DNA from: a virus
Virus record (IMG/VR): IMGVR_UViG_3300009146_000026
Coordinates: 1 to 36,798 of that record
DNA: 36,798 nt
Direction: 5' to 3' (one strand)
Position 1 is the first letter of the stretch; the number at the start of each line of letters is the position of its first letter. Of this stretch, positions 653 to 33,262 are shown in pieces. Made by a program: the position numbers and the translations under genes. The notes below the pieces were generated by a model. The model saw nothing but the letters and a program-made list of their open reading frames with translations, was not told where the DNA came from and searched no databases.

Positions 653-1392
653 GGGTTGTTCCTCTCTGAGATACCGCGCCGATAGGCGTTCGCTCCGTAG
701 ACCCCGCTGCCGACGGCACCGAGCGTGAGTAGTGCTGCGGCCTTGCCGCGACGGGGCTTGATGGCGATTCCCCGGACCTTCTCCCCGGAGGGCAACTGGA
801 CGTTGCGGGTGTACTTCGACGCCGCCGCACTGCCCAGGACGAGGGCACCTCCCGCTCCAGCACCTGCCGAGAGTCCGAGACGGCGCTGCCGGTCGGCCTC
901 CGGGTCGTAGCGGCGGTAGGCCTTCTCGATGGAGCCGTAGCCCGTGGTGCGATCGTCGTCAGAGATGTAGATGTCGGTGATCGACTCCATGCTGAAATCC
1001 TTCTTCACCTTCGTAGGGGCCACGGGCTGCTTGGCGCTGCGTGCCAGCACCCGGTTGGCCACGACATCACCTCCGACGTTCCCCGCCTGCAGGGCCAGCG
1101 CCCCGCCTGCGAGCAGGGCTGCCTTCTTCGGAGTGAAGTTCCTGGTGAGTCGTGCGATGGGCTGCGGAATCCTGTCGCCTTGACGAGCGATCCAGTTGGC
1201 AGTCTTGCCAGCGCCTTCGGCTCCGAACCTGGGATCGCGCAAGGCTGCCGCTGTGGCTGCGCCACCTGCGGTCAGGCCCAGCACGTTGGAGCCCAGGCCG
1301 ACCCGAGCCTGGGTGCGCTGCTTCTTCTGCTCCGCCTTCTGCTCCGGGGTGAGCCGGGGACCGCGCTTGGCGATCTCGGACAGTGCTGTCAT
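643..1392 (-). CDS. Hypothetical protein with several Gly/Ala-rich hydrophobic segments
   Basis: This 249-residue protein is of unknown family. It starts MTALSEIAKRG, which resembles the start MTALADIGKAA of the 784-residue protein encoded at 4252-6606. It contains at least four short stretches rich in Gly/Ala with GxxxG-type spacing (for example LSAGAGAGGALVLGSAAA), each preceded by Arg/Lys clusters such as DRQRR and PRRGK. A central acidic strip (YISDDDRTTGYGSIEKAY) follows a VKKDF motif that is also found in the 183-residue neighbour encoded at 2699-3250. Its start codon shares a base with the stop of the upstream gene. It is likely co-expressed with the head genes; function is unknown. 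Confidence 0.75.
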   Translation of the reverse strand: MTALSEIAKRGPRLTPEQKAEQKKQRTQARVGLGSNVLGLTAGGAATAAALRDPRFGAEGAGKTANWIARQGDRIPQPIARLTRNFTPKKAALLAGGALALQAGNVGGDVVANRVLARSAKQPVAPTKVKKDFSMESITDIYISDDDRTTGYGSIEKAYRRYDPEADRQRRLGLSAGAGAGGALVLGSAAASKYTRNVQLPSGEKVRGIAIKPRRGKAAALLTLGAVGSGVYGANAYRRGISERNNPWN

Positions 1393-18069: not shown

Positions 18070-19596
18070 TTAGAGCCAGAACACGGTCGTTTCTGGCTCC
18101 TCCTTGATGGTGACCACCCCGTCCTGCGATGACTCGTAGAAGGGCGTGTCCGGTTCTGGGCGCAACGACTCCAGCGACTTGGGCTTGAAGTCGGTCATCC
18201 CGACGGTGTTCGGAGGGGCTGGTGGGGCCTGACGCACAACAGCCCGATGGCAGATGGCCATGGCGGCCACATCATCGGGCAGGTGGTACTTGCGGCCCAG
18301 TCCAGTCGAGTACAAGTCATCGACTGTGGCCGCCTTATGTGCCATATGCAGCGGAGTGTTGCGAGGTAGCACATACATCCCGCGCTCCACGGCGGCCACG
18401 TACTCGGTGAGCAGCAGCACCCGATCCCGGCCCACCATGACGACCTTCACGGTGCGCTCGTCGATCATGTCGTTGACCACGTTGCCAATGCCCGTGCCGT
18501 CATGGGCGCTGACTGCTGAGTAGTCGCGGGTGATCCTGTTGAACGCCTCGATCATCTCCGGCCAGGGCTTGCGGTTCATCCGGCGCACGTACACCACGCG
18601 ATACGGGGTCACATCGGTGCGCACAACGGTCATCACCGTCATGTCGCGCTCCTTGGCCCAGTCAGCGCCTGCCGCATAGGTGGCTGTCACTTCCGGCTTC
18701 GCGTAGACCCACTCGTCATCATGGCCCTTGTGGGTCTCATCGACTGCCGTCATGTCCACGCATGCCTGATCCAACTTGGTCAGGTCGAAGGCACGGGCGT
18801 CACCAGATGGTTCGCCCAGTTCGTACTCGACCCGGAACATCTCGGCTGGGACGGACTGCCGTTTGCGGTCGATGAAGTCCTCGTCCATCCACCCGTCTGG
18901 GTTGGTGGGCGTCTTCAGGACTTCGAGGAAGCACCATGTCCGCACTGGCTGACCCTTGAGCAGGGCCTCATCGCGGACTGACTGGAAGGTGCCCACGGGG
19001 TTCTGCCAGGTGGATGAGGCGACCACCATCTCAGGGACCACATGGCCCCTGGCGTTGGGCTTCTCCATCGCCTGGCCCATGGCCGCGTCGTAGATGGGGC
19101 GTTCCATCTCGTCGATCTCATCGAGCAGGGTCATGTGGGGGTGGGGACCACGCACAGTGCGCTGTGATGCCGCAAGGGGTCGCACCCAGTTATTGGAGTC
19201 GAAGAGGAGTTGAGTCTTGATCTGGCTCTTGATGGCATACCGAGGGGCGTTCGGTGATGCCAGGAGGGACTCCACATGCTCGTGGACGTTGTTGGACTGG
19301 GCCATCGACCCACCCAGCAGGGTGACGTTGATCTCCAGCGCGGCTGCCTTGGTAAGAGCGAGCAGGGCGAGCATCAGGGACTTGCCGGTACCACGACTCC
19401 CATACCAGAGCACCCAGTTGGTCGAGTTCCCGAAGTAGCCCTCGCAGAAGGCGTCGAATGGTGCGTCGTGGTCTGCGCACACCTTCATTCTGGGGATCGA
19501 GATGCCCCATGTGGTCTTCACGAACCACCAGAGTTCCTCGGGATTCTCCGGGGGCCTGGTGATCTGGATGCGCCGCTCTGGTGCGTCGATGCTCAT
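18070..19596 (-). CDS. terL: Terminase large subunit (packaging ATPase/nuclease)
   Basis: This 508-residue protein would drive DNA into the prohead and cut it. The N-terminal ATPase has Walker A GSRGTGKS (residues 66-73) and Walker B MTLLDEIDE with D159/E160. The C-terminal RNase H-like nuclease starts at AAGADWAKERD, with D312 as first metal ligand, followed by SAHDGTGIGN with a second Asp. Length and domain order are normal. Its ATG overlaps the stop of the small upstream gene. The usual small-terminase partner is not beside it; a candidate lies on the other strand at 35859-36317. Confidence 0.93.
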   Translation of the reverse strand: MSIDAPERRIQITRPPENPEELWWFVKTTWGISIPRMKVCADHDAPFDAFCEGYFGNSTNWVLWYGSRGTGKSLMLALLALTKAAALEINVTLLGGSMAQSNNVHEHVESLLASPNAPRYAIKSQIKTQLLFDSNNWVRPLAASQRTVRGPHPHMTLLDEIDEMERPIYDAAMGQAMEKPNARGHVVPEMVVASSTWQNPVGTFQSVRDEALLKGQPVRTWCFLEVLKTPTNPDGWMDEDFIDRKRQSVPAEMFRVEYELGEPSGDARAFDLTKLDQACVDMTAVDETHKGHDDEWVYAKPEVTATYAAGADWAKERDMTVMTVVRTDVTPYRVVYVRRMNRKPWPEMIEAFNRITRDYSAVSAHDGTGIGNVVNDMIDERTVKVVMVGRDRVLLLTEYVAAVERGMYVLPRNTPLHMAHKAATVDDLYSTGLGRKYHLPDDVAAMAICHRAVVRQAPPAPPNTVGMTDFKPKSLESLRPEPDTPFYESSQDGVVTIKEEPETTVFWL

Positions 19597-19835
19597 GGCA
19601 GGTTCAGATCAGGTGAGTTCCACGGATGGACGAACGGCGTGGGCTCGTTGACGATCTCGACGTACTCCAGGTCGGGTCCGAGGATCTCGTGCAATGCCTT
19701 CTGAGTTCGGTGCTTCAGTTCAGCCAAGGATTCGTCTGCTGATGAGAACTGCAGGCTGGCATAGGCCCACCAGGTGCCTGCCTCGTAGGTGTACTCGATC
19801 CGCACGCTGTAGGGATGCTCGGTGATCTTGCTCAT
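19593..19835 (-). CDS. Small hypothetical protein upstream of terminase
   Basis: This 80-residue protein is of unknown family. It starts MSKITEHPYSVRIEYTYEAG and contains aromatic residues in an alternating pattern that suggests beta strands, then a charged helix (LAELKHRTQKALHEIL). It has no membrane segment or Cys. The ATG overlaps the TGA of the LPXTG gene and the stop overlaps the terminase ATG, so it is one step in a coupled chain. Confidence 0.68.
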   Translation of the reverse strand: MSKITEHPYSVRIEYTYEAGTWWAYASLQFSSADESLAELKHRTQKALHEILGPDLEYVEIVNEPTPFVHPWNSPDLNLP

Positions 19836-20176
19836 AGCCGCCTCGCCAGACGTATCAGGAAGATGCCCCCACCTATCAGGATGAGGGCAGAGATGAGCAT
19901 GATGCCTACTTCAAACGGTCCGGTCTCTGGCAATGTTGGAGATGGCGAGGCGGTCCCTGACGATGTAGGGCTCGGCTCGGGCGTCGAAGCAAGAACACAG
20001 CCGTTGAGGTAGATCGCCTCGCCGCCAGGCCAGTTGCTCCCCTCGGTCACATCATCCACAGGTGGCCAGATGTCCATCTCATGGTTGTCATGGCCCTTCA
20101 GGGCTGAGGTGCTGACCTCTATCGCGTTCCAGTGTCCGCCCTCGGCCCAGTGACAGAGGACTATCCGGTTGCCGAT
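19832..20176 (-). CDS. LPXTG-type cell-wall-anchored small surface protein, probable ATC start
   Basis: From the proposed ATC the product is 114 residues; from the first ATG (20077) it would be 81. The C-terminus is a classic sortase signal: LPETG (residues 82-86), a hydrophobic stretch (VGIMLISALILIGGGIFLI) and the basic tail RLARRL. A Ser/Pro/Thr-rich stalk precedes it. The 33 residues upstream of the ATG include IVLCHWAEGGHWNAIEVS then ALKGHDNHEMD, matching a CH...GH motif of exported actinobacterial proteins, which argues that they are translated. In frame they contain no ATG, GTG or TTG, but an ATC lies 6 nt after a perfect GGAGG. No signal peptide is visible, so how it would be exported is unclear. 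It overlaps both neighbours. Confidence 0.72.
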   Translation of the reverse strand: MGNRIVLCHWAEGGHWNAIEVSTSALKGHDNHEMDIWPPVDDVTEGSNWPGGEAIYLNGCVLASTPEPSPTSSGTASPSPTLPETGPFEVGIMLISALILIGGGIFLIRLARRL

Positions 20177-20475
20177 GGCTCACCTCCGAAGGGCCTGCGG
20201 TACCAAGAAAGGGCCTTGGCCCGCTCGTCCACCATCTCATCTGTGACCGGCTCCAACTGCTTCACCGAGAAGGTCAGGGTGTATCGGCTGCTGGCCTCTC
20301 TGGTGGAGCCCTTGACCATGCTGACCACCAAGGTGTCCGAGAGCCCTTCACATGCCTCCACGAAGCGCCTGAGGTCCCAGAGATGGGGAGGGTTGGTGTC
20401 CCTGCCAGTGCCGTAGGGCTTTGCCACGTGAGTGACCTCGATGGTCCTCATCACGTACTCAGCCCTATCGGCCAT
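20161..20475 (-). CDS. Hypothetical protein
   Basis: This 104-residue protein is not recognised. It starts MADRAEYVMRTIEVTHV, has a middle helix (LWDLRRFVEACEGLSD) and ends with a short charged helix. No catalytic or metal-binding motif is seen. ATG shares one base with the stop of the DUF6378-like gene (TGATG). Its last codons contain the Shine-Dalgarno of the following LPXTG gene. Confidence 0.65.
   Translation of the reverse strand: MADRAEYVMRTIEVTHVAKPYGTGRDTNPPHLWDLRRFVEACEGLSDTLVVSMVKGSTREASSRYTLTFSVKQLEPVTDEMVDERAKALSWYRRPFGGEPSATG
20174..20187 (-). promoter_or_regulatory. Ribosome binding site deciding an ATC start
   Basis: GGAGG at 20187-20183 (minus strand, within GGAGGTGA) is followed after 6 nt by ATC at 20176-20174, in frame with the LPXTG protein. 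An in-frame TGA at 20182-20180 lies between them, so translation of this frame cannot begin further upstream. The upstream gene ends 13 nt beyond the ATC codon. Site and spacing are directly visible; use of ATC is inferred. Confidence 0.6.
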
Positions 20476-20951
20476 CAGTCACTGTCTACGCCAAGGGTGC
20501 GGGCCACATCAGCACCACATGCTGCGTACCCGGCAAGGTCGATCCAGGAGTCCTCATGTAAAGGGTTGGTGGCGATCCTGGCGATCTTCATCAGGGCCAA
20601 CATCGCTGCCACATCAGCGGCCAGAAGGGCATCCATCCCCAGATAGGCACCCCACATGGCTGCGATCCGCTCGAAGGACTGCTCCGGTGATCCGTACGCG
20701 ACGTTGCGGTCCTGGGTGACGATGTGGGCCGCTCTGCCAAGGATGTCCATCCGGTACTCGGCTGATGGGTCCAACTGTGGTTCGGGATCAGGCTCAGGCA
20801 CTGTCCCAAGGGGTGGTCCAGGATCAGGCCATCTGCTACCCGGTGGCCTTGGAACACTGAGGCTCTCCACCAGGTGAGGTGGAATCTCGTTGCCCTCGAT
20901 GAAGGCCTGGAAGTCGGGCTCGTCATCACGCTTGCGCTTCTGAACGGTCAT
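20475..20951 (-). CDS. DUF6378-like phage protein
   Basis: This is a 158-residue protein. The first 65 residues are a Pro-rich linker (repeats of PDPEP type). The C-terminal 90 residues match the pattern of the DUF6378 family common in phages: ILGRAAHIVTQDRNVAYGSP, then FERIAAMWGAYLG, then LMKIARIATNP, then SWIDLAGYAACGADVA. The family has no firm function. The gene overlaps both neighbours by 1-4 nt in the leftward unit. Confidence 0.8.
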   Translation of the reverse strand: MTVQKRKRDDEPDFQAFIEGNEIPPHLVESLSVPRPPGSRWPDPGPPLGTVPEPDPEPQLDPSAEYRMDILGRAAHIVTQDRNVAYGSPEQSFERIAAMWGAYLGMDALLAADVAAMLALMKIARIATNPLHEDSWIDLAGYAACGADVARTLGVDSD

Positions 20952-23211: not shown

Positions 23212-23439
23212 GTGGAAGACGAAGTTGACGACCTGACAGACGACGAACTTTCCGTCTTGCAGGAGTGGAAAGAGATCGTCCCGGAGATGATGCAGAGCCT
23301 TCGAGTGAACGGCATCTACTCCTACGGGCTGACATCCGACGAGATGACGATGTTGCTGCATGAACCTGGGATGTCGGAGTTGTACGCCGCGCTCCAGCAG
23401 CGCGCACAAGAGTTGGAATCAAAAGGAGACCAGAAATGA
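23212..23439 (+). CDS. Small acidic hypothetical protein
   Basis: This 75-residue protein begins at GTG with AGGAGACCA just before it (MEDEVDDLTDDELSVLQEW). It is acidic and all-helical in appearance, and no family is recognised. It lies between helicase and BRO-type genes and overlaps the latter by 4 nt (ATGA). A helicase-loader or adaptor role is conceivable from position only. Confidence 0.68.
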   Translation: MEDEVDDLTDDELSVLQEWKEIVPEMMQSLRVNGIYSYGLTSDEMTMLLHEPGMSELYAALQQRAQELESKGDQK

Positions 23440-24125
23440 GTGCTGAGTTACAGCCCCTCGCATGGGGCGGAGACAACCTGGAGTTCAGGCCCGGTCCTGA
23501 TGGTGAGCCCTGGATCGTCCTGGTGACCCTCTGTCGGATGCTGGGCATCAACAACCACCGGCAGGTCGCTTCACGGTTGGATGACGACGAAAAGGGTGTC
23601 ATTACTAGTGACACCCTTGGCGGGCCTCAGGAGACGATCATCGTCAGCGAGACCGCTGCCTACCAGATCATCATGCAGTCGAGGAAGCCACAGACCAAGC
23701 AGTTCATACGGGTGGTGGCAGATCACATGAAGAGCCTGCGCAAGCATGGCCACGCCATGCCCGGTGTCTCGTCGGACAACATGGCTCGGTTGGTTGCAAA
23801 CCCTGAAGGAGCCATGCTCCTGGAACTGGTCAGGGTCAAGGCAGAGCAGTTGAATCTGATTGAGCGCACCAACGAGGTGGAGCGCAAGTTGTCTGCCATC
23901 GGTGACCTTGACGATGGGTACACGACCATCGTCGGGTACTTCAACCACATCGGTGGCTCAGTCGATGAGACCAACGCGTCCATCATCGGCAAGCGGGCCT
24001 CCAAGTTGTGCCGTCAGCGGGGCATCAGGATCGGCACGGTCAAGAGCGTGCGTTGGGGAGTCGTCCAGTCCTACCCGGAGTCAGTGATCGCCGAGGCTGT
24101 TGAGTGGTTCAGGGGGCGTGGCTGA
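23436..24125 (+). CDS. BRO-N domain antirepressor-like protein
   Basis: In this 229-residue protein residues about 12-105 match the BRO-N fold of phage antirepressors: WIVLVTLCRMLGINNHRQV, DDDEKGV, IIVSETAAYQII and KQFIRVVADHM. A linker and short coiled coil (LIERTNEVERKL) lead to a C-terminal DNA-binding-type domain (TTIVGYFNHIGGSVDET, KLCRQRGIRIG, then YPESVIAEAVEWF). Such proteins usually act as antirepressors or transcription regulators in phages. Shine-Dalgarno AAAAGGAG precedes the ATG. Confidence 0.85.
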   Translation: MSAELQPLAWGGDNLEFRPGPDGEPWIVLVTLCRMLGINNHRQVASRLDDDEKGVITSDTLGGPQETIIVSETAAYQIIMQSRKPQTKQFIRVVADHMKSLRKHGHAMPGVSSDNMARLVANPEGAMLLELVRVKAEQLNLIERTNEVERKLSAIGDLDDGYTTIVGYFNHIGGSVDETNASIIGKRASKLCRQRGIRIGTVKSVRWGVVQSYPESVIAEAVEWFRGRG

Positions 24126-25878: not shown

Positions 25879-26111
25879 GCGGCCAGATGCCCATGGGACG
25901 CCCGGAGCAGGGCAACCAGGACCGTGCCGTCGCCAGCATCTCGTTCCAGTTCTACCTGAACGGGCAGCAGGCATGGGCCAGAGGTGAGTACGAGACCTAC
26001 GTGCACACCGGAGAGGTGCAGGAGGAGGCCATGCTGAGGGCCACCGACAACGCATTGGTCATCGCACTGGAGACCAGAGACGCATTCATCACCAAGAGCA
26101 AGGAGCACTGA
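25875..26111 (+). CDS. Hypothetical protein
   Basis: This 78-residue protein has a short disordered start (MSGQMPMGRPEQGNQDRA) followed by a compact strand-strand-helix body (SISFQFYLNGQQAWARGEY). No domain is recognised. ATGA overlap with the previous gene and a GGAGACC ribosome site support it. Confidence 0.65.
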   Translation: MSGQMPMGRPEQGNQDRAVASISFQFYLNGQQAWARGEYETYVHTGEVQEEAMLRATDNALVIALETRDAFITKSKEH

Positions 26112-26113
26112 GC

Positions 26114-27109
26114 ATGGACTTTGGCGAGTGGAACTTCCTCGACAACGAGGAAGCCGCATCACGTCCCGGACGTGGGGACCAGTCACGGGTCTTCATCACC
26201 AGCCTGAAGGCTGACACGCCCCACCTGTTCTACTTCCTCACCAAGCCCGGCTCGTTCGCGGGCGACTGGGTCAACTTCAGGGAACTGAACACCCGTGAGG
26301 GCCTGAAGGTGGGGCCGGACCTTCCCAGCGACATGCGCTTCGGGATCGCGGTGCGCGACTACCGCATGGTCGATAACCAGATCACCGGCAAGCGCGTCAA
26401 GGAGATCGACAACAACCTCGATCCCCTGACCGCAGGCGCTCCCGGCAACCAGATGTGGATCAACGGGTCGAAGAACACCGACGCCAACGGTCTGATCAAG
26501 GTGACCGAGCGGTGCGCCGTCAACGTGGTGGACGCCATCACCGGCTACCACAAGATCCTCAAGATGAGCATGAGCGCCCGGGATGACATCCAGGGGTACT
26601 TCGCCGGGAAGGAGAAGGAGGAGGAGAACTTCCAGATCCAGAGTCGTCCCTACGAACTCCTCTACACCGGGGAGGGCTACAAGTGGCGGGTGGCCATACA
26701 TGGGGTCCGTCCCGGCAGCACTGTGATCCGTGACGGCAAGGCCGTCGAGGTGCCTCCTCACCCGCAGTTGGGAGACGCCCTCGACATCAGGAAGGTGCTC
26801 ATCGAGCAGCGCCAGGAGTTGGACGCCATTCTGGCGTCCTTCCCCACCCGTTCGGGTCAGCCCATCGACACCTCCAACGCCCCTGACTTCGTGCAGGAGG
26901 CGGCTGCTGCGATGGAGGAGATCAACGCCGAGGCCTTCGACATCTTCAAGGAGGCCGCGCCCAAGGGCAACGGCGACTCCGCGAAGGAGAAGTACCTGGC
27001 GATGAGCCCGGCGCGTCTCCGTGCCATGCACGCCAAGGCTGGGCTCGATGTGGAGCGCGGCGTCACCAAGGAAGCACTCGCTGAGAGTGCTGCCGCGAAC
27101 AACCTGTAG
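26114..27109 (+). CDS. Unknown 331-residue replication-region protein
   Basis: Not recognised. The N-terminal 230 residues look like a mixed alpha/beta domain (SRVFITSLKADTPHLFYFL, DMRFGIAVRDYRMVD). The C-terminal 100 residues are helical and acidic, with a low-complexity linker. It sits directly before the polymerase and is followed by a strong intrinsic terminator. An upstream gene closed off in this way may be made in larger amounts than the polymerase, as would suit an ssDNA-binding or processivity factor. That is inference; no OB-fold signature is evident by eye. Confidence 0.75.
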   Translation: MDFGEWNFLDNEEAASRPGRGDQSRVFITSLKADTPHLFYFLTKPGSFAGDWVNFRELNTREGLKVGPDLPSDMRFGIAVRDYRMVDNQITGKRVKEIDNNLDPLTAGAPGNQMWINGSKNTDANGLIKVTERCAVNVVDAITGYHKILKMSMSARDDIQGYFAGKEKEEENFQIQSRPYELLYTGEGYKWRVAIHGVRPGSTVIRDGKAVEVPPHPQLGDALDIRKVLIEQRQELDAILASFPTRSGQPIDTSNAPDFVQEAAAAMEEINAEAFDIFKEAAPKGNGDSAKEKYLAMSPARLRAMHAKAGLDVERGVTKEALAESAAANNL

Positions 27110-27120
27110 TTCCGGTCACT

Positions 27121-27155
27121 GGGAGGGGGCGCGCTTCGGCGTGCTCCCTCCCTTT
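27121..27155 (+). terminator. Intrinsic terminator or attenuator before the polymerase gene
   Basis: A 14-bp stem (27121-27134 with 27139-27152, two G-T pairs) closes a TTCG loop flanked by C and G, the very stable cUUCGg tetraloop. TTT follows at 27153-27155. It lies 11 nt after the stop of the 331-residue gene and 15 nt before the polymerase ATG. The short T-run suggests partial rather than complete termination. Confidence 0.75.
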
Positions 27156-27170
27156 CCGTTGGGAGAACAC

Positions 27171-29897
27171 ATGGTTTGGACACACGTTCACAGCATGTAC
27201 TCGGCGAAGGATGCCCTCCCTCATCCGGTGGACATCGTCGCCCGAGCGAAGCAGTTGGGCTTTCCGGCGCTGGCTCTGACCGATCACGGCAATATGGGTG
27301 GGATCGTTCCGTTCTACCTGGCCTGTCGCAAGAATGGCATAGAGCCCCTTCCGGGCATCGAGGCTTATGTGGCCTTCGAGCGGAGCAGGGAGGGCAAGGG
27401 CCGCAAGCGGGCCGAGACCTTCCACCTCACGATGCTGGCCACCAGCCTGACCGGCTATCGGAACCTGGTGGCGCTGCACAACGAGAGCCATCGCCAGTTC
27501 TACTACCAGCCGGTCATAGACCTGGGTGATCTGGCGTACGCGGCTGAGAACGGGGGCCTGGACGGCATCTACGGGCTCTCTGGCTGCTGGTTCGGCCTTG
27601 GCCCCAGGATGCTGCGAGAAGGCTCTCCAACAGCCGTCCTGGGGCTCCTGAAGGCTTTGGACGGGTGGTTCGGCTCGGGGTTCGCCATAGAACTGATGCA
27701 CCACGAGATATCCGACCAGGCCCACGACGACACCGAGCACGTGAAGATGCTCCACGCGGTGTCCGAGCGGCTGGGGCTGCCCACCGTGATCAGCCAGGAC
27801 AGCCACTACGTGTACGCCCAGGACCGGGCAGACCACGACATGTACAAGTGGCTCACGTCCTGGGGTCGTCCTGACGAGGCGCAGTGGCCCGGCAGGTTGG
27901 GCTACCACATGGTGGGCTTCGACGAGGTCAAGCACCTCTACCCGAAGCACATCTGGGACAAGGCGATGGACGGGATGCTGGACCTCTACAAGATGGCCCA
28001 CGTCCGCATCCCGGAGTTGGAGTCCTACCACCTGCGGGTGCCCGACATGGCGCTCACCGAGGACCCGATGAGAACGCTGAAGACGATCTGCGACCACAAC
28101 CTCGCAGAGGCGATCCACTCCAAGCACATCGCCCGTGTCTCCGGGAAGACCTTCTGGAACCGGCTGGAGGACGAGTACGAGGTCATCGAGTCATCCGGGT
28201 TCGCCCCGTACCTGATGCTGGTCAAGGAGGTGTGCGACGAACTGGAGAAACGGGGGATCGTCTGGTCGGTTCGTGGCAGCGCCAGCGGGTCGCTGGTCTG
28301 CTACCTGCTGGGGATCACCTCGTTCGAGCCGATCAGATGGCGGCTGCGGTTCGACCGTTTCCTGTCCACGGATCGGACCAAACCCCCGGACATCGACATC
28401 GACATGGACCCTGAGTTCAGGGAGTCGATGTTCGAGTACCTGGGCAGCAGGTTCCACACCCTGCGGATCGGCACATGGTCGAAGTTCAAGTTGACCGCAG
28501 AGGATGACGACGACTTCGACCCCGCCAAGCCACAGCGGGGATCGTTGCCGGTGCAGTACAAGTACGCCCTCGGCAAGATCATCGAGGAGCAGCACGGGTC
28601 CGACCGCAAGAGGTGGCCGCGTGAAGCCCATGATCGGTGGAACGCAGAGATCCCGGCCAAGGACTGGAAGCGGCTGCAGGCGCTGGACAGGTACCGGGCG
28701 TACAAGAACTGGTCCACCCATGCCGCCGGGCTGATCATCACCGACGACGAGCAGGCGATCGCGGAGATCCCGCAACTGGCCGTCACCGGCAAGGACTACA
28801 TGGTCTCGGCGTTCAACAAGGACGACGTGGAACGGCTGGGGCTGGTCAAGTTGGACCTGCTCAACCTGAAGTTGCTGACCGCGATCCGGGTCATGCAGCA
28901 GGTGTCCGGGGTCAAGCACAAGGACGTGCCACCCGGTGACGGCAAGGTGTACACCCACATCAACCGGGGAAACGTGACCGGCATCTTCCAGTTGGAAGGA
29001 GGTTCCACCAAGCAGGGGATCAGGCGGCTGAGGCCATCCAAGATCGAGGACCTGGTGGCTGCGGTGGCCCTGTTCCGTCCGGCCACGATGGACTCCGGGG
29101 CCACCGATGACTTCCTGCGCCGTCGGAACAAGGAGTTGAAGGTGCCCGAACGGCATCCGCTGATCGCGGGCGTGACCAAGGACACCTACGGCATCCTGCT
29201 CTACCAGGAGCAGGCCATAGAGATTTTCCGTGGTCTGGGCATGACCATCGAGGAGATCGAGGCTGCCAGGGGAGCCATCAAGGCCTCAAACGCAGGTGTC
29301 CATGACGCCGGGCTCGTGCTGGCTGAGATGTCGGTGCGGATCGGTGAACTGGCCACTGGGCTTGGCATGTCCGATGAGGATCAGCGATGGCTCAGCAACA
29401 CGCTGGCCGCCTTCGCCGGGTACTCGTTCAACAGGTCCCACGCCGTGGCCTACGCCGTGTGGGCGTACAAGTCGGCGTGGTACTCGCTGCACCATCCGGT
29501 GGCGTTCTGGACCGGGATGCTCACCGCCCACTCGGGTGCCTCTGAGAAGGAGCGCACGAAGCAGTACCTGACGGCTGCCGTTGCCGCAGGGGTCGCGATC
29601 CGGCCCCCGAACGTGCGGACATCAGGTGTCACCTACCGGGCCGATCCACGGGCGCAGTTCATCTACAAGGGACTGCTCTCCATCAACGGGATCGGCGTCA
29701 AGACTGCGGAGGAGATCGTCCGCAACCAGCCGTACACGAGCCTGGACGACTTCGCCACAAGGGTGTCCAACAGGCTGGTGACCGGCAGCAAGAACCTCGG
29801 TCTGGGTGTCCACCCGGCTGAGTGCACTGGGGCAGTCGCCCTGCTTCACACCGCTGGAGCCCTCAAGGGGCTGGAGTTCGAGAAGGAGACCAGATGA
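27171..29897 (+). CDS. DnaE-type (family C) DNA polymerase III alpha with PHP domain
   Basis: This 908-residue replicative polymerase has an N-terminal PHP domain with THVHSMYSAKDA and ALTDHGNMGG; the metal-binding His residues appear kept, so a proofreading or pyrophosphatase activity is possible. The polymerase core has VRGSASGSLVCYLLGI, then PPDIDIDMD with D407 and D409, then LVKLDLLNLKLL with D562, equivalent to the E. coli DnaE D401/D403/D555 triad. A helix-hairpin-helix (SINGIGVKTAEEIV) lies near the C-terminus. It ends soon after, so the OB and tau-binding regions of bacterial alpha (about 1160 residues) are missing. ATG 27171 follows GGGAGA; an upstream in-frame ATG would overlap the previous gene. 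Confidence 0.92.
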   Translation: MVWTHVHSMYSAKDALPHPVDIVARAKQLGFPALALTDHGNMGGIVPFYLACRKNGIEPLPGIEAYVAFERSREGKGRKRAETFHLTMLATSLTGYRNLVALHNESHRQFYYQPVIDLGDLAYAAENGGLDGIYGLSGCWFGLGPRMLREGSPTAVLGLLKALDGWFGSGFAIELMHHEISDQAHDDTEHVKMLHAVSERLGLPTVISQDSHYVYAQDRADHDMYKWLTSWGRPDEAQWPGRLGYHMVGFDEVKHLYPKHIWDKAMDGMLDLYKMAHVRIPELESYHLRVPDMALTEDPMRTLKTICDHNLAEAIHSKHIARVSGKTFWNRLEDEYEVIESSGFAPYLMLVKEVCDELEKRGIVWSVRGSASGSLVCYLLGITSFEPIRWRLRFDRFLSTDRTKPPDIDIDMDPEFRESMFEYLGSRFHTLRIGTWSKFKLTAEDDDDFDPAKPQRGSLPVQYKYALGKIIEEQHGSDRKRWPREAHDRWNAEIPAKDWKRLQALDRYRAYKNWSTHAAGLIITDDEQAIAEIPQLAVTGKDYMVSAFNKDDVERLGLVKLDLLNLKLLTAIRVMQQVSGVKHKDVPPGDGKVYTHINRGNVTGIFQLEGGSTKQGIRRLRPSKIEDLVAAVALFRPATMDSGATDDFLRRRNKELKVPERHPLIAGVTKDTYGILLYQEQAIEIFRGLGMTIEEIEAARGAIKASNAGVHDAGLVLAEMSVRIGELATGLGMSDEDQRWLSNTLAAFAGYSFNRSHAVAYAVWAYKSAWYSLHHPVAFWTGMLTAHSGASEKERTKQYLTAAVAAGVAIRPPNVRTSGVTYRADPRAQFIYKGLLSINGIGVKTAEEIVRNQPYTSLDDFATRVSNRLVTGSKNLGLGVHPAECTGAVALLHTAGALKGLEFEKETR

Positions 29898-30223: not shown

Positions 30224-30662
30224 CATCAGCAAGTTGAAGACGGTGCTGGGCATCGTCAAGGAGTTGGCGGCACTGCAGGAGCACCCCACTGCCAAGCCCA
30301 TGGACCACAAGTACCAGGGGCTTTTTTGGAAGCAGGACGAGTGGATCAGGGAGGCGTTCCCAATCGACCTGGTGGACATCGACCTGGTGGATAACGTGGA
30401 CAACGGCCCGTCCTGCGGCACGGCCATGTGCTTCGCCGGATGGACCGCGTACCTGGACGGGTTCACCGATGTCGATGGCTACGAGCGCGTGATGGTGAAT
30501 CCGACGACCGGGGAGACGTTGGCGATGGACGGCATCGAGGAGTACGCCACGGACTCCTTGGACCTGACCACGTATCAGGCCGATGACCTGTTCGAAGGAG
30601 GCAACGAACTCAGTGATCTGGAGGAGATCATCGACTTCATCGCCGAGCAGGAGAAAGGATGA
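30216..30662 (+). CDS. CGTxMCFAGW-family protein, copy 1
   Basis: This is a 148-residue acidic protein. The conserved core reads GLFWKQDEWI, then CGTAMCFAGWTAYLDGFTD, then MVNPTTGE, then ADDLFEGGNEL. The same blocks occur in the 151-residue protein encoded at 34283-34738, so the two are paralogs. The two closely spaced Cys could bind a metal or form a disulphide. Function is unknown. ATG 30216 follows GGAGACCA; the longer upstream frame lies inside the previous gene. Confidence 0.75.
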   Translation: MADISKLKTVLGIVKELAALQEHPTAKPMDHKYQGLFWKQDEWIREAFPIDLVDIDLVDNVDNGPSCGTAMCFAGWTAYLDGFTDVDGYERVMVNPTTGETLAMDGIEEYATDSLDLTTYQADDLFEGGNELSDLEEIIDFIAEQEKG

Positions 30663-30910
30663 CTGACCACGACCCGCTGTGTGCAATCAACACGGGCATA
30701 CCCGGCGACGCATGTGACTGCCTGCTGATCGCCAAGGTCCGTGCCGATGAGATGGAGAAGTGCTACGCCGACGTGATCCCAAGAGTTCGCATGGCCCATG
30801 ACCAGTTGCGCGCCAAGGTGGAGGCGTTGCTCAACGAGATGCACTCCGACTGGAGCAATCCTCGCTATCAAGCGGTCCTAGCCCTGATCGACGGGGGCGG
30901 CGATGAGTAG
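30659..30910 (+). CDS. HDPxC...CxC small protein, copy 1
   Basis: This 83-residue protein starts MTDHDPLCAINTG then DACDCLLIAKVRADE, with a helical body containing LRAKVEAL and ending LIDGGGDE. It belongs to a local family with the products of 30903-31187 and 31352-31678. C-x(n)-C-x-C could bind zinc. It overlaps both neighbours by 4-8 nt. Confidence 0.68.
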   Translation: MTDHDPLCAINTGIPGDACDCLLIAKVRADEMEKCYADVIPRVRMAHDQLRAKVEALLNEMHSDWSNPRYQAVLALIDGGGDE

Positions 30911-31187
30911 ATGGCAGGACGCTCACGACCCGATGTGCCCAGCATCCCGGGCGAAGAACTGGCAGGCGTGGTTCGCCTCCATATGGTGTCAGTGCTACCC
31001 GATCCGCTTGGGCAGGCTCGAAGGCGAGAAGGACGCTCGACGCTTCAGGAAGGCTGTCCTGACCGATTTCCGCGATCAAGTGGAGGCGCTGCGAACCAAC
31101 TTCAAGGACGACCTCGGTGAGATGTGGAACATGGCACTGGACCGGGTGATCACCCTGATCGACGGGGGCGACGATGACTCAGCCTGA
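30903..31187 (+). CDS. HDPxC...CxC small protein, copy 2 (diverged)
   Basis: This 94-residue protein begins MSRWQDAHDPMCPASRAKNW with WCQCYPIRLGRLEGEKDAR. It keeps the HDPxC and CxC elements and the VEAL and TLIDGGDDD ends of its neighbours, but the middle is different. Function is unknown. Confidence 0.65.
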   Translation: MSRWQDAHDPMCPASRAKNWQAWFASIWCQCYPIRLGRLEGEKDARRFRKAVLTDFRDQVEALRTNFKDDLGEMWNMALDRVITLIDGGDDDSA

Positions 31188-31359
31188 TACCGCGATCTGC
31201 GCCAACTGCGGCAAGCCGATCCGTCATCCGGAGTCGGGCTCGTACCCGCCGGAGGTTGAGTGGGTCCATGTGCGGAATCGGATGGGGAGCGGCAATCGGT
31301 ACTGCGGCATCGACGGATTCGTCGCCAAGCCCGCCCTGCGCGGGAGCGGCGATGACTGA
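31174..31359 (+). CDS. Small zinc-ribbon-like protein
   Basis: This 61-residue protein contains CANCGKPIRHPE near the start and NRYCGIDG later. CxxC and a third Cys suggest a small zinc-binding fold, though the fourth ligand is not clear. It lies within the run of Cys-containing small genes and overlaps its neighbours. Confidence 0.6.
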   Translation: MTQPDTAICANCGKPIRHPESGSYPPEVEWVHVRNRMGSGNRYCGIDGFVAKPALRGSGDD

Positions 31360-31678
31360 CCACGATTTGCGGTGTCCCGCTCCGCAGTACTGGCATTCTC
31401 CCGGAACGGCCATGGCTGCATGTCAGTGCGACTTGATCGCCAAGGTTCGCGCCGATGAGCGGGACAAACTGGACGCAGGCTGGCTGTACTACTCGGCAGC
31501 GGCGGCTGACGTTGTGCAGGCTGTTCGCCTCGATGAGCGTGCTGACCTCCGCGCCAAGGTGGAGGCGCTGGGTCACACCAACATCTGCTCCATCCAACTT
31601 CGCAGTCCCAAGTACCGGCAGTGCACCTGCTTCCAGAAGGATGTGCTCGCACTGCTTGTAGGAAGTGACGATGACTAA
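31352..31678 (+). CDS. HDPxC...CxC small protein, copy 3
   Basis: This 108-residue protein begins MTDHDLRCPAPQYWHS with ACQCDLIAKVRADERD and later LRAKVEALGH, closely matching copy 1 but with a 30-residue insertion. The DNA is also alike over the LIAKVRADE and RAKVEAL codons, which points to local duplication. An extra CTCF pair is present near the end. Function is unknown. Confidence 0.68.
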   Translation: MTDHDLRCPAPQYWHSPGTAMAACQCDLIAKVRADERDKLDAGWLYYSAAAADVVQAVRLDERADLRAKVEALGHTNICSIQLRSPKYRQCTCFQKDVLALLVGSDDD

Positions 31679-31886
31679 CCGCGACAGGTGCCGGTGGTGC
31701 GGACGGTTTGTTCCGGTCGGAACCGAGCCCACCACAAGGACCATCAAGAGCGCAGACGAGTCATGGCGCAGGGTGCAGCAGATGCTGTGCCCGCAACACT
31801 CACGGGACTGGTCTGTTGACCTTCCGTGGAACAGAGAGGCGGACCTGACGCTGCCTCTGGAAGTGCTAGGAGAGGAGACCGAATGA
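31671..31886 (+). CDS. Small zinc-finger-like protein
   Basis: This 71-residue protein has CRWCGRFV at residues 7-14 and CPQHSRDW near residue 40, giving a CxxC...CxxH set that could bind one zinc. A preceding GTG (31665) is an alternative start; the ATG was kept because AGGAAG is well spaced before it. The C-terminus encodes the ribosome site of the next gene. Confidence 0.62.
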   Translation: MTNRDRCRWCGRFVPVGTEPTTRTIKSADESWRRVQQMLCPQHSRDWSVDLPWNREADLTLPLEVLGEETE

Positions 31887-32358: not shown

Positions 32359-32504
32359 GTCCGCAGGAGCACTTCGTCAAGGTCAACCCGGAATGGGTGC
32401 GCATGGCTGCAGAGGACATGGAACGGGAAGGCCCTGACTTCTCTGTCACCTGGGAGAGCACAACCGGCGATCTGGTGACTCTGGTGTGGGAGGACGACTC
32501 ATGA
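32355..32504 (+). CDS. Very small hypothetical protein (49 residues)
   Basis: ATGA overlap at both ends and GGAGACC before the ATG. The protein reads MSPQEHFVKVNPEWVRMAAE followed by a short strand-rich acidic end. Function is unknown. Confidence 0.55.
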   Translation: MSPQEHFVKVNPEWVRMAAEDMEREGPDFSVTWESTTGDLVTLVWEDDS

Positions 32505-33262
32505 GCAAGTTCACCGACCAGGTCGCAGACCTGCTGATGGGAGGGGACAGGCCGGTCACGCAGGCCATGCACGACTGGGACGGTGTAATGACCGAAACCG
32601 CTGTTATGCGTGTGGCTGCTCAGGAGATCAAGGACAACAGCCCACACACCAACCGCTCCGATGGCCGGGGTCGGATCAGGCCGTCCAACCTGAACTCCAT
32701 GTGCGCTCGGCTCCACGTCTTCTCATGGATGGGAGCGCCCAACGAGAAGGGCGACACCACGCTCATGGATGACGGCACCCAGCGCCACTACTACTGGCAG
32801 AAGGCGGGCCTGAGCGCCGGGTTCCTGTCAGACATCGAGACCAAGGTGGAGGTGCCCGAACTGGGCATCCGGGGCGGTCTCGACGGGCTCATGCCGGACG
32901 GCTCGGTCTTCGAGTTCAAGGTCACCGGCCCGAGGCTGTTCGAGCAGCGGATGGCGGCACGGGAGCCCACCCGCTCCCACCTCCGTCAGGTGCACGCCTA
33001 CATGAAGGCGGCTGGCACCGACAAGGCGTCCATCGTCTACGAGCGGCGCTCCTACACGGTGGACTGGCACGAGTTCCGGGTCACCTTCGACCCGGCTGTC
33101 TACCGGGAACTGCAGGAATTGGCGCTGCCGGTCCTGGACGCCGTGGACCACGGGGTGCTGCCCCCGATGATCCCGGAGTGCGTCCCACTGAGCGGTCCCA
33201 CGTTCACCGGCTGCGGCTACCACCACATCTGCCCCTCGGCAGAGGCCTCCACCAAGTGGTGA
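32501..33262 (+). CDS. Cas4/RecB-like PD-(D/E)XK nuclease with Fe-S cysteines
   Basis: In this 253-residue protein the nuclease site is GGLDGLMPDGSVFEFK with D128, E138 and K140, followed by a QVHAY motif (Q163, Y167) typical of RecB/Cas4 exonucleases. Four Cys are placed as in Cas4/AddB: C68 before the nuclease core, and C227, C238 and C244 at the end (FTGCGYHHIC), which would hold an iron-sulfur cluster. It probably processes DNA ends in recombination or degrades host DNA. No CRISPR array or other cas gene is nearby, so it is a phage recombination nuclease. Confidence 0.82.
   Translation: MSKFTDQVADLLMGGDRPVTQAMHDWDGVMTETAVMRVAAQEIKDNSPHTNRSDGRGRIRPSNLNSMCARLHVFSWMGAPNEKGDTTLMDDGTQRHYYWQKAGLSAGFLSDIETKVEVPELGIRGGLDGLMPDGSVFEFKVTGPRLFEQRMAAREPTRSHLRQVHAYMKAAGTDKASIVYERRSYTVDWHEFRVTFDPAVYRELQELALPVLDAVDHGVLPPMIPECVPLSGPTFTGCGYHHICPSAEASTKW

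What the first reader, a model, noticed from the sequence alone, without database searches (positions are those of the whole stretch)
19832..20187. Phage LPXTG surface protein that appears to start at an ATC codon
Seen: LPETG, hydrophobic segment and basic tail; conserved-looking CH...GH region lies upstream of the first ATG; GGAGG sits exactly 6 nt before an in-frame ATC, and no ATG/GTG/TTG exists in that stretch. Known: LPXTG proteins are anchored by sortase in Gram-positive hosts, and ATC starts are very rare. Inferred: a phage coats or alters its host surface with a tiny anchored protein whose output is limited by a weak start codon. The lack of a signal peptide is unexplained.
Basis: partly seen in the sequence, partly recalled or inferred. 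Interest (0 to 1): 0.75.

Follow-up and report, generated by a model that had tools for sequence, protein, structure and literature searches.

The report
Relocated phage surface-protein gene, ATC start
An uncultured phage carries a small gene for a probable membrane- or wall-anchored protein that seems to have landed at the start of its DNA-packaging gene, losing its normal start codon on the way, so that the only well-placed start left is the very rare ATC.

Summary
On the minus strand, 114 codons (20176..19835) are open behind GGAGG + 6 nt + ATC, with no ATG/GTG/TTG before codon 34, and the frame encodes LPETG, a membrane helix and a basic tail. The 33 codons before the first Met are protein-coding: the nearest related phage encodes a 41% identical protein whose GTG aligns without gaps to the ATC, has Trp at the 'Met 34' position, and shows dN/dS about 0.23 over codons 2-33. 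Distant relatives occur in Arthrobacter phages, where they carry signal peptides. Neither the window protein nor its close homolog has one. The homolog lies in the early region of its phage and the two sites are reciprocally empty, so this is cargo that moved. In the window it sits exactly at the ancestral terminase start: GGAGGTGAGCCATCGG is a slightly altered copy of the relative's terminase start GGAGTGAGCATCG. The ATC is therefore probably a relic codon of that site, not a mutated ATG or a base-calling error. Translation from ATC is likely but unproven. Sortase anchoring is possible but not conserved: the homolog has CETG. The host is probably an actinobacterium.

The parts
19832..20176 (-). 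CDS of 114 codons + stop, ATC-initiated reading (CH domain, Pro/Ser/Thr linker, LPETG, membrane helix, basic tail)
   Evidence: homolog alignment
20183..20187 (-). GGAGG Shine-Dalgarno sequence, 6 nt before ATC
   Evidence: duplex energy -10.8 kcal/mol
20174..20176 (-). ATC codon, aligned without gaps to the GTG start of the homolog in G001
20162..20164 (-). in-frame ATA overlapping the TAG stop of the upstream gene (ATAG), an alternative near-cognate start with weak SD (-1.9)
19997..20164 (-). Cys-His domain, residues 5-60; Cys8 and Cys60 invariant in 7 of 7 proteins
19934..19996 (-). Pro/Ser/Thr-rich linker, residues 61-81
19919..19933 (-). LPETG motif, residues 82-86
19835..19909 (-). membrane helix (residues 90-108) and basic tail RLARRL
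20170..20189 (-). relic of the ancestral terminase start (aligns to L002 terL start; TCGGAGGTGAGCCATCGGCA)
19585..19596 (-). present terminase start ATGAGCATCGAC, the second copy of the TGAGC-ATCG sequence flanking the insert
19593..19835 (-). 80-codon ORF (ATG) inserted together with the gene; no relatives found
20161..20475 (-). upstream gene (104 aa); its homolog in L002 abuts the terminase directly
18070..19596 (-). terminase large subunit
31662..31678 (+). empty counterpart of the place where the homolog sits in G001 (neighbours 31178-31678 and 31662-31886 abut here)

Best explanation
This is a mobile cargo gene of an actinobacterial phage for a small anchored protein with a Cys-His domain. 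It was inserted, together with an 80-codon ORF, exactly at the start of the terminase gene. In that move its own start (GTG in the nearest relative) was replaced by a remnant of the old terminase start. A GGAGG 6 nt before the remnant's ATC codon now makes this ATC the start, helped by coupling to the upstream gene, whose stop codon begins 11 nt after the ATC, so output is low but not nil. The product is probably inserted N-out/C-in by its single C-terminal helix, with the disulfide-capable Cys-His domain outside; LPETG could then let a host sortase fix it to the wall. Shown: the conserved frame before the first Met, its alignment to the homolog's GTG, the Shine-Dalgarno sequence, the two reciprocally empty sites and the likeness to the terminase start. 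Inferred: initiation at ATC, coupling, topology, sortase anchoring and any function at the host surface.
For: Homolog in G001, 41% identity over 131 aligned columns, E 8e-34, found as 1 of 61 related records with the profiles. Its GTG (L125:3186) aligns gap-free with the ATC, and Trp replaces Met34. Codons 2-33: dN 0.35, dS 1.51. That GTG has the best SD of the homolog's three in-frame candidate starts (-6.9, against -6.0 and 0.6). ATC has an SD of -10.8, matched by 0.8% of positions. The codons before the Met score +11.7 bits as coding, best of six frames. Site: in L002 the upstream gene and terminase abut. The 5' end of the window gene aligns to L002's terminase start, 17 of 18 paired bases identical with two 1-nt gaps; 1 of 3000 random L002 segments scored as high. 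The homolog's place is empty in the window. Topology: charge -10 before the helix, RLARRL after it. Cys8 and Cys60 are invariant in 7 of 7 proteins. Gram-positive host: among the 15 listed of 1315 records hit by the polymerase, all are Gordonia or Brevibacterium phages, and the CH family hits are in Arthrobacter phages.
Against: No expression data. AUC gave 0.1-0.3% of AUG activity in E. coli, though 5-20% in two clostridia (PMC9680021, passages read). Only one close homolog, and it has two further in-frame ATGs upstream of its GTG (L125:3150, 3162), so its start is not certain. dN/dS over the whole divergence cannot exclude a recent loss of function. No signal peptide. The homolog lacks LPXTG (CETG). 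The part after Met34 scores -3.7 bits, though still best of six frames.
Confidence: 0.5

Rival explanations
1. The gene is not translated as drawn: the insertion (or later small indels at the junction) destroyed its start and it is decaying, or the contig has a base-calling or assembly error just upstream of or in the ATC codon.
For: A GTG (20183-20181) lies close upstream but out of frame; the homolog and L002's terminase both begin GTGAGC.
Against: The ATC corresponds to an ATC in L002's terminase start, so it is not simply a miscalled ATG. The out-of-frame GTG has a weak SD (-2.6) while ATC has -10.8. The frame is open for 114 codons with an intact LPETG and helix. Terminase and portal genes of the contig align without frame breaks to L002.
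Confidence: 0.3
2. Translation starts at another near-cognate codon, ATA at 20164-20162, by termination-reinitiation at ATAG where the upstream gene stops, or arises by a -1 frameshift from the upstream gene.
For: Neighbouring junctions of this operon overlap as ATGA (e.g. 19835/19832, 19596/19593), and ATAG has the same geometry. The frame relation to the upstream gene is -1.
Against: The SD before ATA is -1.9. The homolog's start aligns with ATC. No X XXY YYZ slippery heptamer lies between TGA 20180 and TAG 20161 (read). An upstream-gene fusion would add no signal peptide.
Confidence: 0.12
3. The real protein is the 81-residue version from ATG 20077 and the CH region is untranslated.
For: It is the first canonical start codon.
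Against: SD -1.5; Trp in the homolog at that residue; purifying selection upstream; half of a conserved domain would be lost.
Confidence: 0.03
4. The protein is made but is not a sortase substrate: it is a plain C-terminally anchored membrane protein (N-out or cytoplasmic), and LPETG is incidental or a decayed sorting signal.
For: No signal peptide in the window protein or the close homolog. The homolog has CETG. Across the 7 family members the motif is LPETG, CETG, MPDTG (twice), TPDTG, TANTG and LPEMG, while the helix and basic residues stay. TIGR01167 matches 0 of 49 related records.
Against: In the window the motif is canonical and passes the TIGR01167 cut-off, and four of seven members keep xPxTG.
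Confidence: 0.45

Closest known systems
Hypothetical protein of phage record G001 (IMGVR_UViG_3300022893_000005), L125:3186-3596
   Same: Same Cys-His domain (37 of 56 domain residues identical), Pro/Ser/Thr linker, C-terminal helix with basic tail, no signal peptide
   Different: GTG (or upstream ATG) start; CETG in place of LPETG; lies in the early region next to small paralogous genes, not at the terminase
Arthrobacter phage Talia1610 gp190 / Racecar gp190 / Mimi gp189 / Atuin gp182 / Qui gp82
   Same: Cys-His domain ending in (N)GC, xPxTG-like motif in most, C-terminal helix and basic tail; profile-profile probability 94%, P 1.3e-7
   Different: Have a signal peptide and a second region of about 100 residues before the anchor; sequence similarity is remote (single-sequence tblastn E 7-9)
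LPXTG sortase substrates (TIGR01167 / PF00746)
   Same: LPETG, hydrophobic segment, basic tail
   Different: No N-terminal signal peptide; PF00746 below cut-off
Bacterial genes with AUU/AUC/AUA start codons (infC is the textbook case, recalled; AUC starts are described as rare in PMC9094748, passage read)
   Same: Near-cognate codon behind a strong SD
   Different: Here the codon seems to be a recombination relic, and no expression is shown

Membership tests
LPXTG sortase substrate | C-terminal LPXTG + hydrophobic segment + basic tail | tested here: met
   TIGR01167 18.5 bits, cut-off 15.9; PF00746 12.8 bits, below its cut-off of 20
LPXTG sortase substrate | N-terminal signal peptide | tested here: not met
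   No hydrophobic stretch in the first 40 residues of the window protein or homolog; an in-frame TGA lies one codon before ATC
LPXTG sortase substrate | Motif conserved in homologs | tested here: not met
   Canonical LPXTG in 1 of 7 proteins, xPxTG in 4 of 7
LPXTG sortase substrate | Host sortase that cleaves it | not testable with these tools
   Host not identified; actinobacterial by phage kinship only
Actinophage Cys-His surface-protein family (Talia1610 gp190-like) | Cys-His domain with invariant Cys8, Asp35, Gly46, Gly59, Cys60 | tested here: met
   against: the two-row A6 profile did not find the Arthrobacter records and the pair HMM gave E about 1-2 for two of them
Actinophage Cys-His surface-protein family (Talia1610 gp190-like) | Signal peptide | tested here: not met
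Actinophage Cys-His surface-protein family (Talia1610 gp190-like) | C-terminal membrane helix with basic tail | tested here: met
Non-AUG (AUC) initiated gene | Conserved coding sequence reaching up to the proposed start and no canonical start in frame | tested here: met
Non-AUG (AUC) initiated gene | SD at proper spacing | tested here: met
Non-AUG (AUC) initiated gene | Direct evidence of initiation (N-terminal peptide, profiling) | not testable with these tools
   none available

The most novel reading that the evidence does not exclude
A phage cargo gene captured the translation start site of the terminase gene: the insertion replaced the cargo's own start with a relic ATC codon which, behind a newly formed GGAGG, now works as a genuine low-level AUC start, and the product is a wall-anchored phage protein that is exported without a signal peptide by N-tail translocation.
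Probability: 0.25. Interest if true: 0.7.

Novelty: new variant of a known kind. Interest (0 to 1): 0.48.

Why it matters
AUC-started genes are rarely supported by comparative evidence. Here a homolog fixes where the start should be, and the neighbouring phage shows where the ATC may have come from. That gives a concrete, testable route by which cargo genes settle into a packed late operon by taking over a neighbour's ribosome-binding site. It also points to an undescribed family of small actinophage surface proteins (Cys-His domain + anchor), one branch of which lacks a signal peptide.

Tried and rejected
Direct homolog searches with the single protein found nothing in viral contigs or phages. 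The 60-residue domain found nothing in plasmids and nothing in solved structures. Degenerate DNA patterns for the CH/GH..H..D core gave only out-of-frame or unrelated matches in viral contigs and genome contigs (4 matches, none in a family frame). Alignments A3 and A4 found no relatives in viral contigs. Cyanophage NATL1A-7 (frame read) and plasmid StoSoilB13 (frame read) were rejected as lacking the CH motif. G013 gave a weak A6 match (E 0.013, 28 of 56 positions, one stop inside); I did not read it and treat it as chance. L052's LPTTG frame was rejected as an incidental hydrophobic frame. AlphaFold on the window protein alone and with its homolog gave a confident helix only in the first (pLDDT above 90) and low confidence in the Cys-His domain (below 65), so no fold search was made. 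A second gene with apparent conservation before its first start (25988-26113) was explained by an overlapping ORF in another frame. I found no print report of an actinophage LPXTG protein in the listings, and none on ATC-started phage genes in the listings; titles and abstract openings only were seen there. The paper search for Racecar/Mimi was empty. Papers read in passages: PMC10158994, PMC9680021, PMC9094748, PMC8299109.

Full report
1. What is there. The feature is on the minus strand of an IMG/VR virus record of 36,798 bases, no end repeats. GGAGG (20187-20183), TGA (20182-20180), GCC and ATC (20176-20174) are followed by 113 more open codons and TGA 19834-19832. No ATG, GTG or TTG occurs before codon 34. 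The product has a Cys-His region, a Pro/Ser/Thr linker, LPETG, a 19-residue hydrophobic helix and RLARRL. TIGR01167 (LPXTG anchor) is passed at 18.5 bits against 15.9; PF00746 is not (12.8 against 20). The upstream gene ends at TAG 20163-20161, so the two frames overlap by 16 nt counted from the ATC; the downstream 80-codon ORF overlaps the gene's stop as ATGA.

2. Is the part before the first Met coding? Yes. A profile search through the records of related phages (terminase relatives) found one homolog: 1 of 49 records, 0 of the remaining 12. It is in G001, the nearest relative (terminase 81% identical). BLASTP: 54 of 131 aligned columns identical, E 8e-34; in the domain 37 of 56 residues are identical. 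Reading the homolog from its GTG (L125:3186), the first 60 residues align without a gap and that GTG falls on the window's ATC; residue 34 is Trp, not Met. Over codons 2-33 dN is 0.35 and dS 1.51; over codons 34-60 dN is 0.27 and dS 0.86 (Nei-Gojobori). A codon-usage score trained on nine genes of the window gives +11.7 bits for the 33 codons, best of six frames. Cautions: there is only one close homolog, and it has in-frame ATGs 24 and 36 nt upstream of the GTG. Of the three candidates the GTG has the best SD (-6.9, against -6.0 and 0.6 kcal/mol).

3. The start. Duplex energy of a 15-nt upstream stretch with ACCUCCUUU is -10.8 kcal/mol before ATC, -1.9 before the next near-cognate codon ATA (20164) and -1.5 before ATG 20077. 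Of 20 gene starts that I chose in this record only one is stronger, and 0.8% of minus-strand positions are as strong. ATC is therefore the best-placed start by SD and by homology. How well AUC works depends on the organism: 0.1-0.3% of AUG in E. coli but 5-20% in two clostridia in one study (PMC9680021, passages read). For actinobacteria I have no figure.

4. Where the ATC may come from. In the relative L002 (a locus of G001) the upstream gene runs straight into the terminase, which starts TCGGAGTGAGCATCGCCA with GTG as start. The window has TCGGAGGTGAGCCATCGGCA at the 5' end of the LPETG gene: 17 of 18 paired bases identical with two 1-nt gaps; 1 of 3000 random L002 segments scored as high. 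The window's own terminase, downstream of the insert, starts ATGAGCATCG. So the insert (LPETG gene + 80-codon ORF) is flanked by two copies of a terminase-start-like sequence, and the ATC corresponds to the third codon (Ile) of the old terminase start. This argues against a miscalled or mutated ATG. It does not exclude an indel error nearby, nor that the gene is now silent. An out-of-frame GTG at 20183 has a weak SD (-2.6).

5. The gene moved. In G001 the homolog lies between a member of a small paralogous family (L125:2837-3172) and a gene whose window homolog is 31662-31886. In the window the corresponding genes (31178-31678 and 31662-31886) overlap with nothing between them. Each phage thus has the gene where the other has none. 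I read this as mobile cargo; independent acquisition is also possible. The 80-codon ORF had no relatives in viral contigs, only chance matches in phages and none in 15 of the related records.

6. What the protein is. tblastn of the domain against phages gave Arthrobacter phages Talia1610 and Racecar at E 7-9, which alone would mean nothing. Their proteins, however, have the same order of parts: signal peptide, ICH..., GH..H..DI, NW, NGC, then MPDTG, helix and basic tail. Mimi, Atuin and Qui have relatives. A profile of these five, run over 21,336 six-frame segments of what was held, ranks G001's protein first (E 0.006) and the window's second (E 0.011), with the next at 0.86. Profile against profile gives 94% probability, P 1.3e-7. 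In the other direction the link is weak: the two-sequence profile gives E about 1-2 for two of the Arthrobacter proteins and nothing. Cys8, Asp35, Gly46, Gly59 and Cys60 are invariant in 7 of 7. The histidines are not (Mimi has CQ), so a Cys8-Cys60 disulfide in an exported domain is more likely than a metal site (inference). Strand 4-10 and strand 16-22 of a low-confidence model lie wholly before Met34.

7. Anchoring. Both short proteins lack a signal peptide; the four Arthrobacter phage proteins examined have one. The net charge before the helix is -10 and the tail is basic, which favours N-out/C-in (positive-inside rule, recalled). Canonical LPXTG occurs in 1 of 7, xPxTG in 4 of 7; TIGR01167 matches 0 of 49 related records. 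Sortase anchoring is thus possible for the window protein but is not a conserved property of its branch. The family-wide constant is the membrane helix. Because a defining feature (signal peptide) was tested and not met, I do not file it as a sortase substrate; it may still work like one.

8. Host. The DNA polymerase's 15 listed hits, of 1315 records with a match, are all Gordonia or Brevibacterium phages at about 30% identity, and the CH family is in Arthrobacter phages, so an actinobacterial host is likely.

9. Function, inferred. A small anchored domain made by a phage could alter the host surface during infection, for instance in exclusion of other phages; nothing here tests that. Its two positions, early region and late operon, suggest cargo rather than a structural part.

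10. Verdict. The new points are the homolog that fixes the start position, the shared lack of a signal peptide, the relocation, and the likely origin of the ATC from the old terminase start.

Noticed in passing
L125:2226-3172 (record G001) and window 30617-31678: Small tandem paralogous genes (...KVRADE...RAKVEAL...LALIDG..DE) in both phages; successive ORFs overlap.
   Followed up: partly
window 27021-29897, 32438-33262 and 23436-24125: DnaE-type DNA polymerase III alpha with PHP domain, a Cas4-like exonuclease and a Bro-N antirepressor-like gene.
   Followed up: no
window 20475-20951: DUF6378 domain at the C terminus; PHROGs calls the family phosphofructokinase, which looks like a misnomer.
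   Followed up: no
Arthrobacter phages Talia1610 (L109), Racecar (L115), Mimi (L116), Atuin (L117): Signal peptide + Cys-His domain + xPxTG-like anchor protein at a conserved position, between a large gene (annotated minor tail protein in two of them) and a nucleotidyl transferase.
   Followed up: partly
window 1152-1241: ARAGORN reports one tRNA-like gene with an odd four-base anticodon (tgac).
   Followed up: no
IMGVR_UViG_3300027749_000047 (135,953 bases): Two terminase matches at different places of one contig (L009 and L019), possibly a duplicated or concatenated assembly.
   Followed up: no
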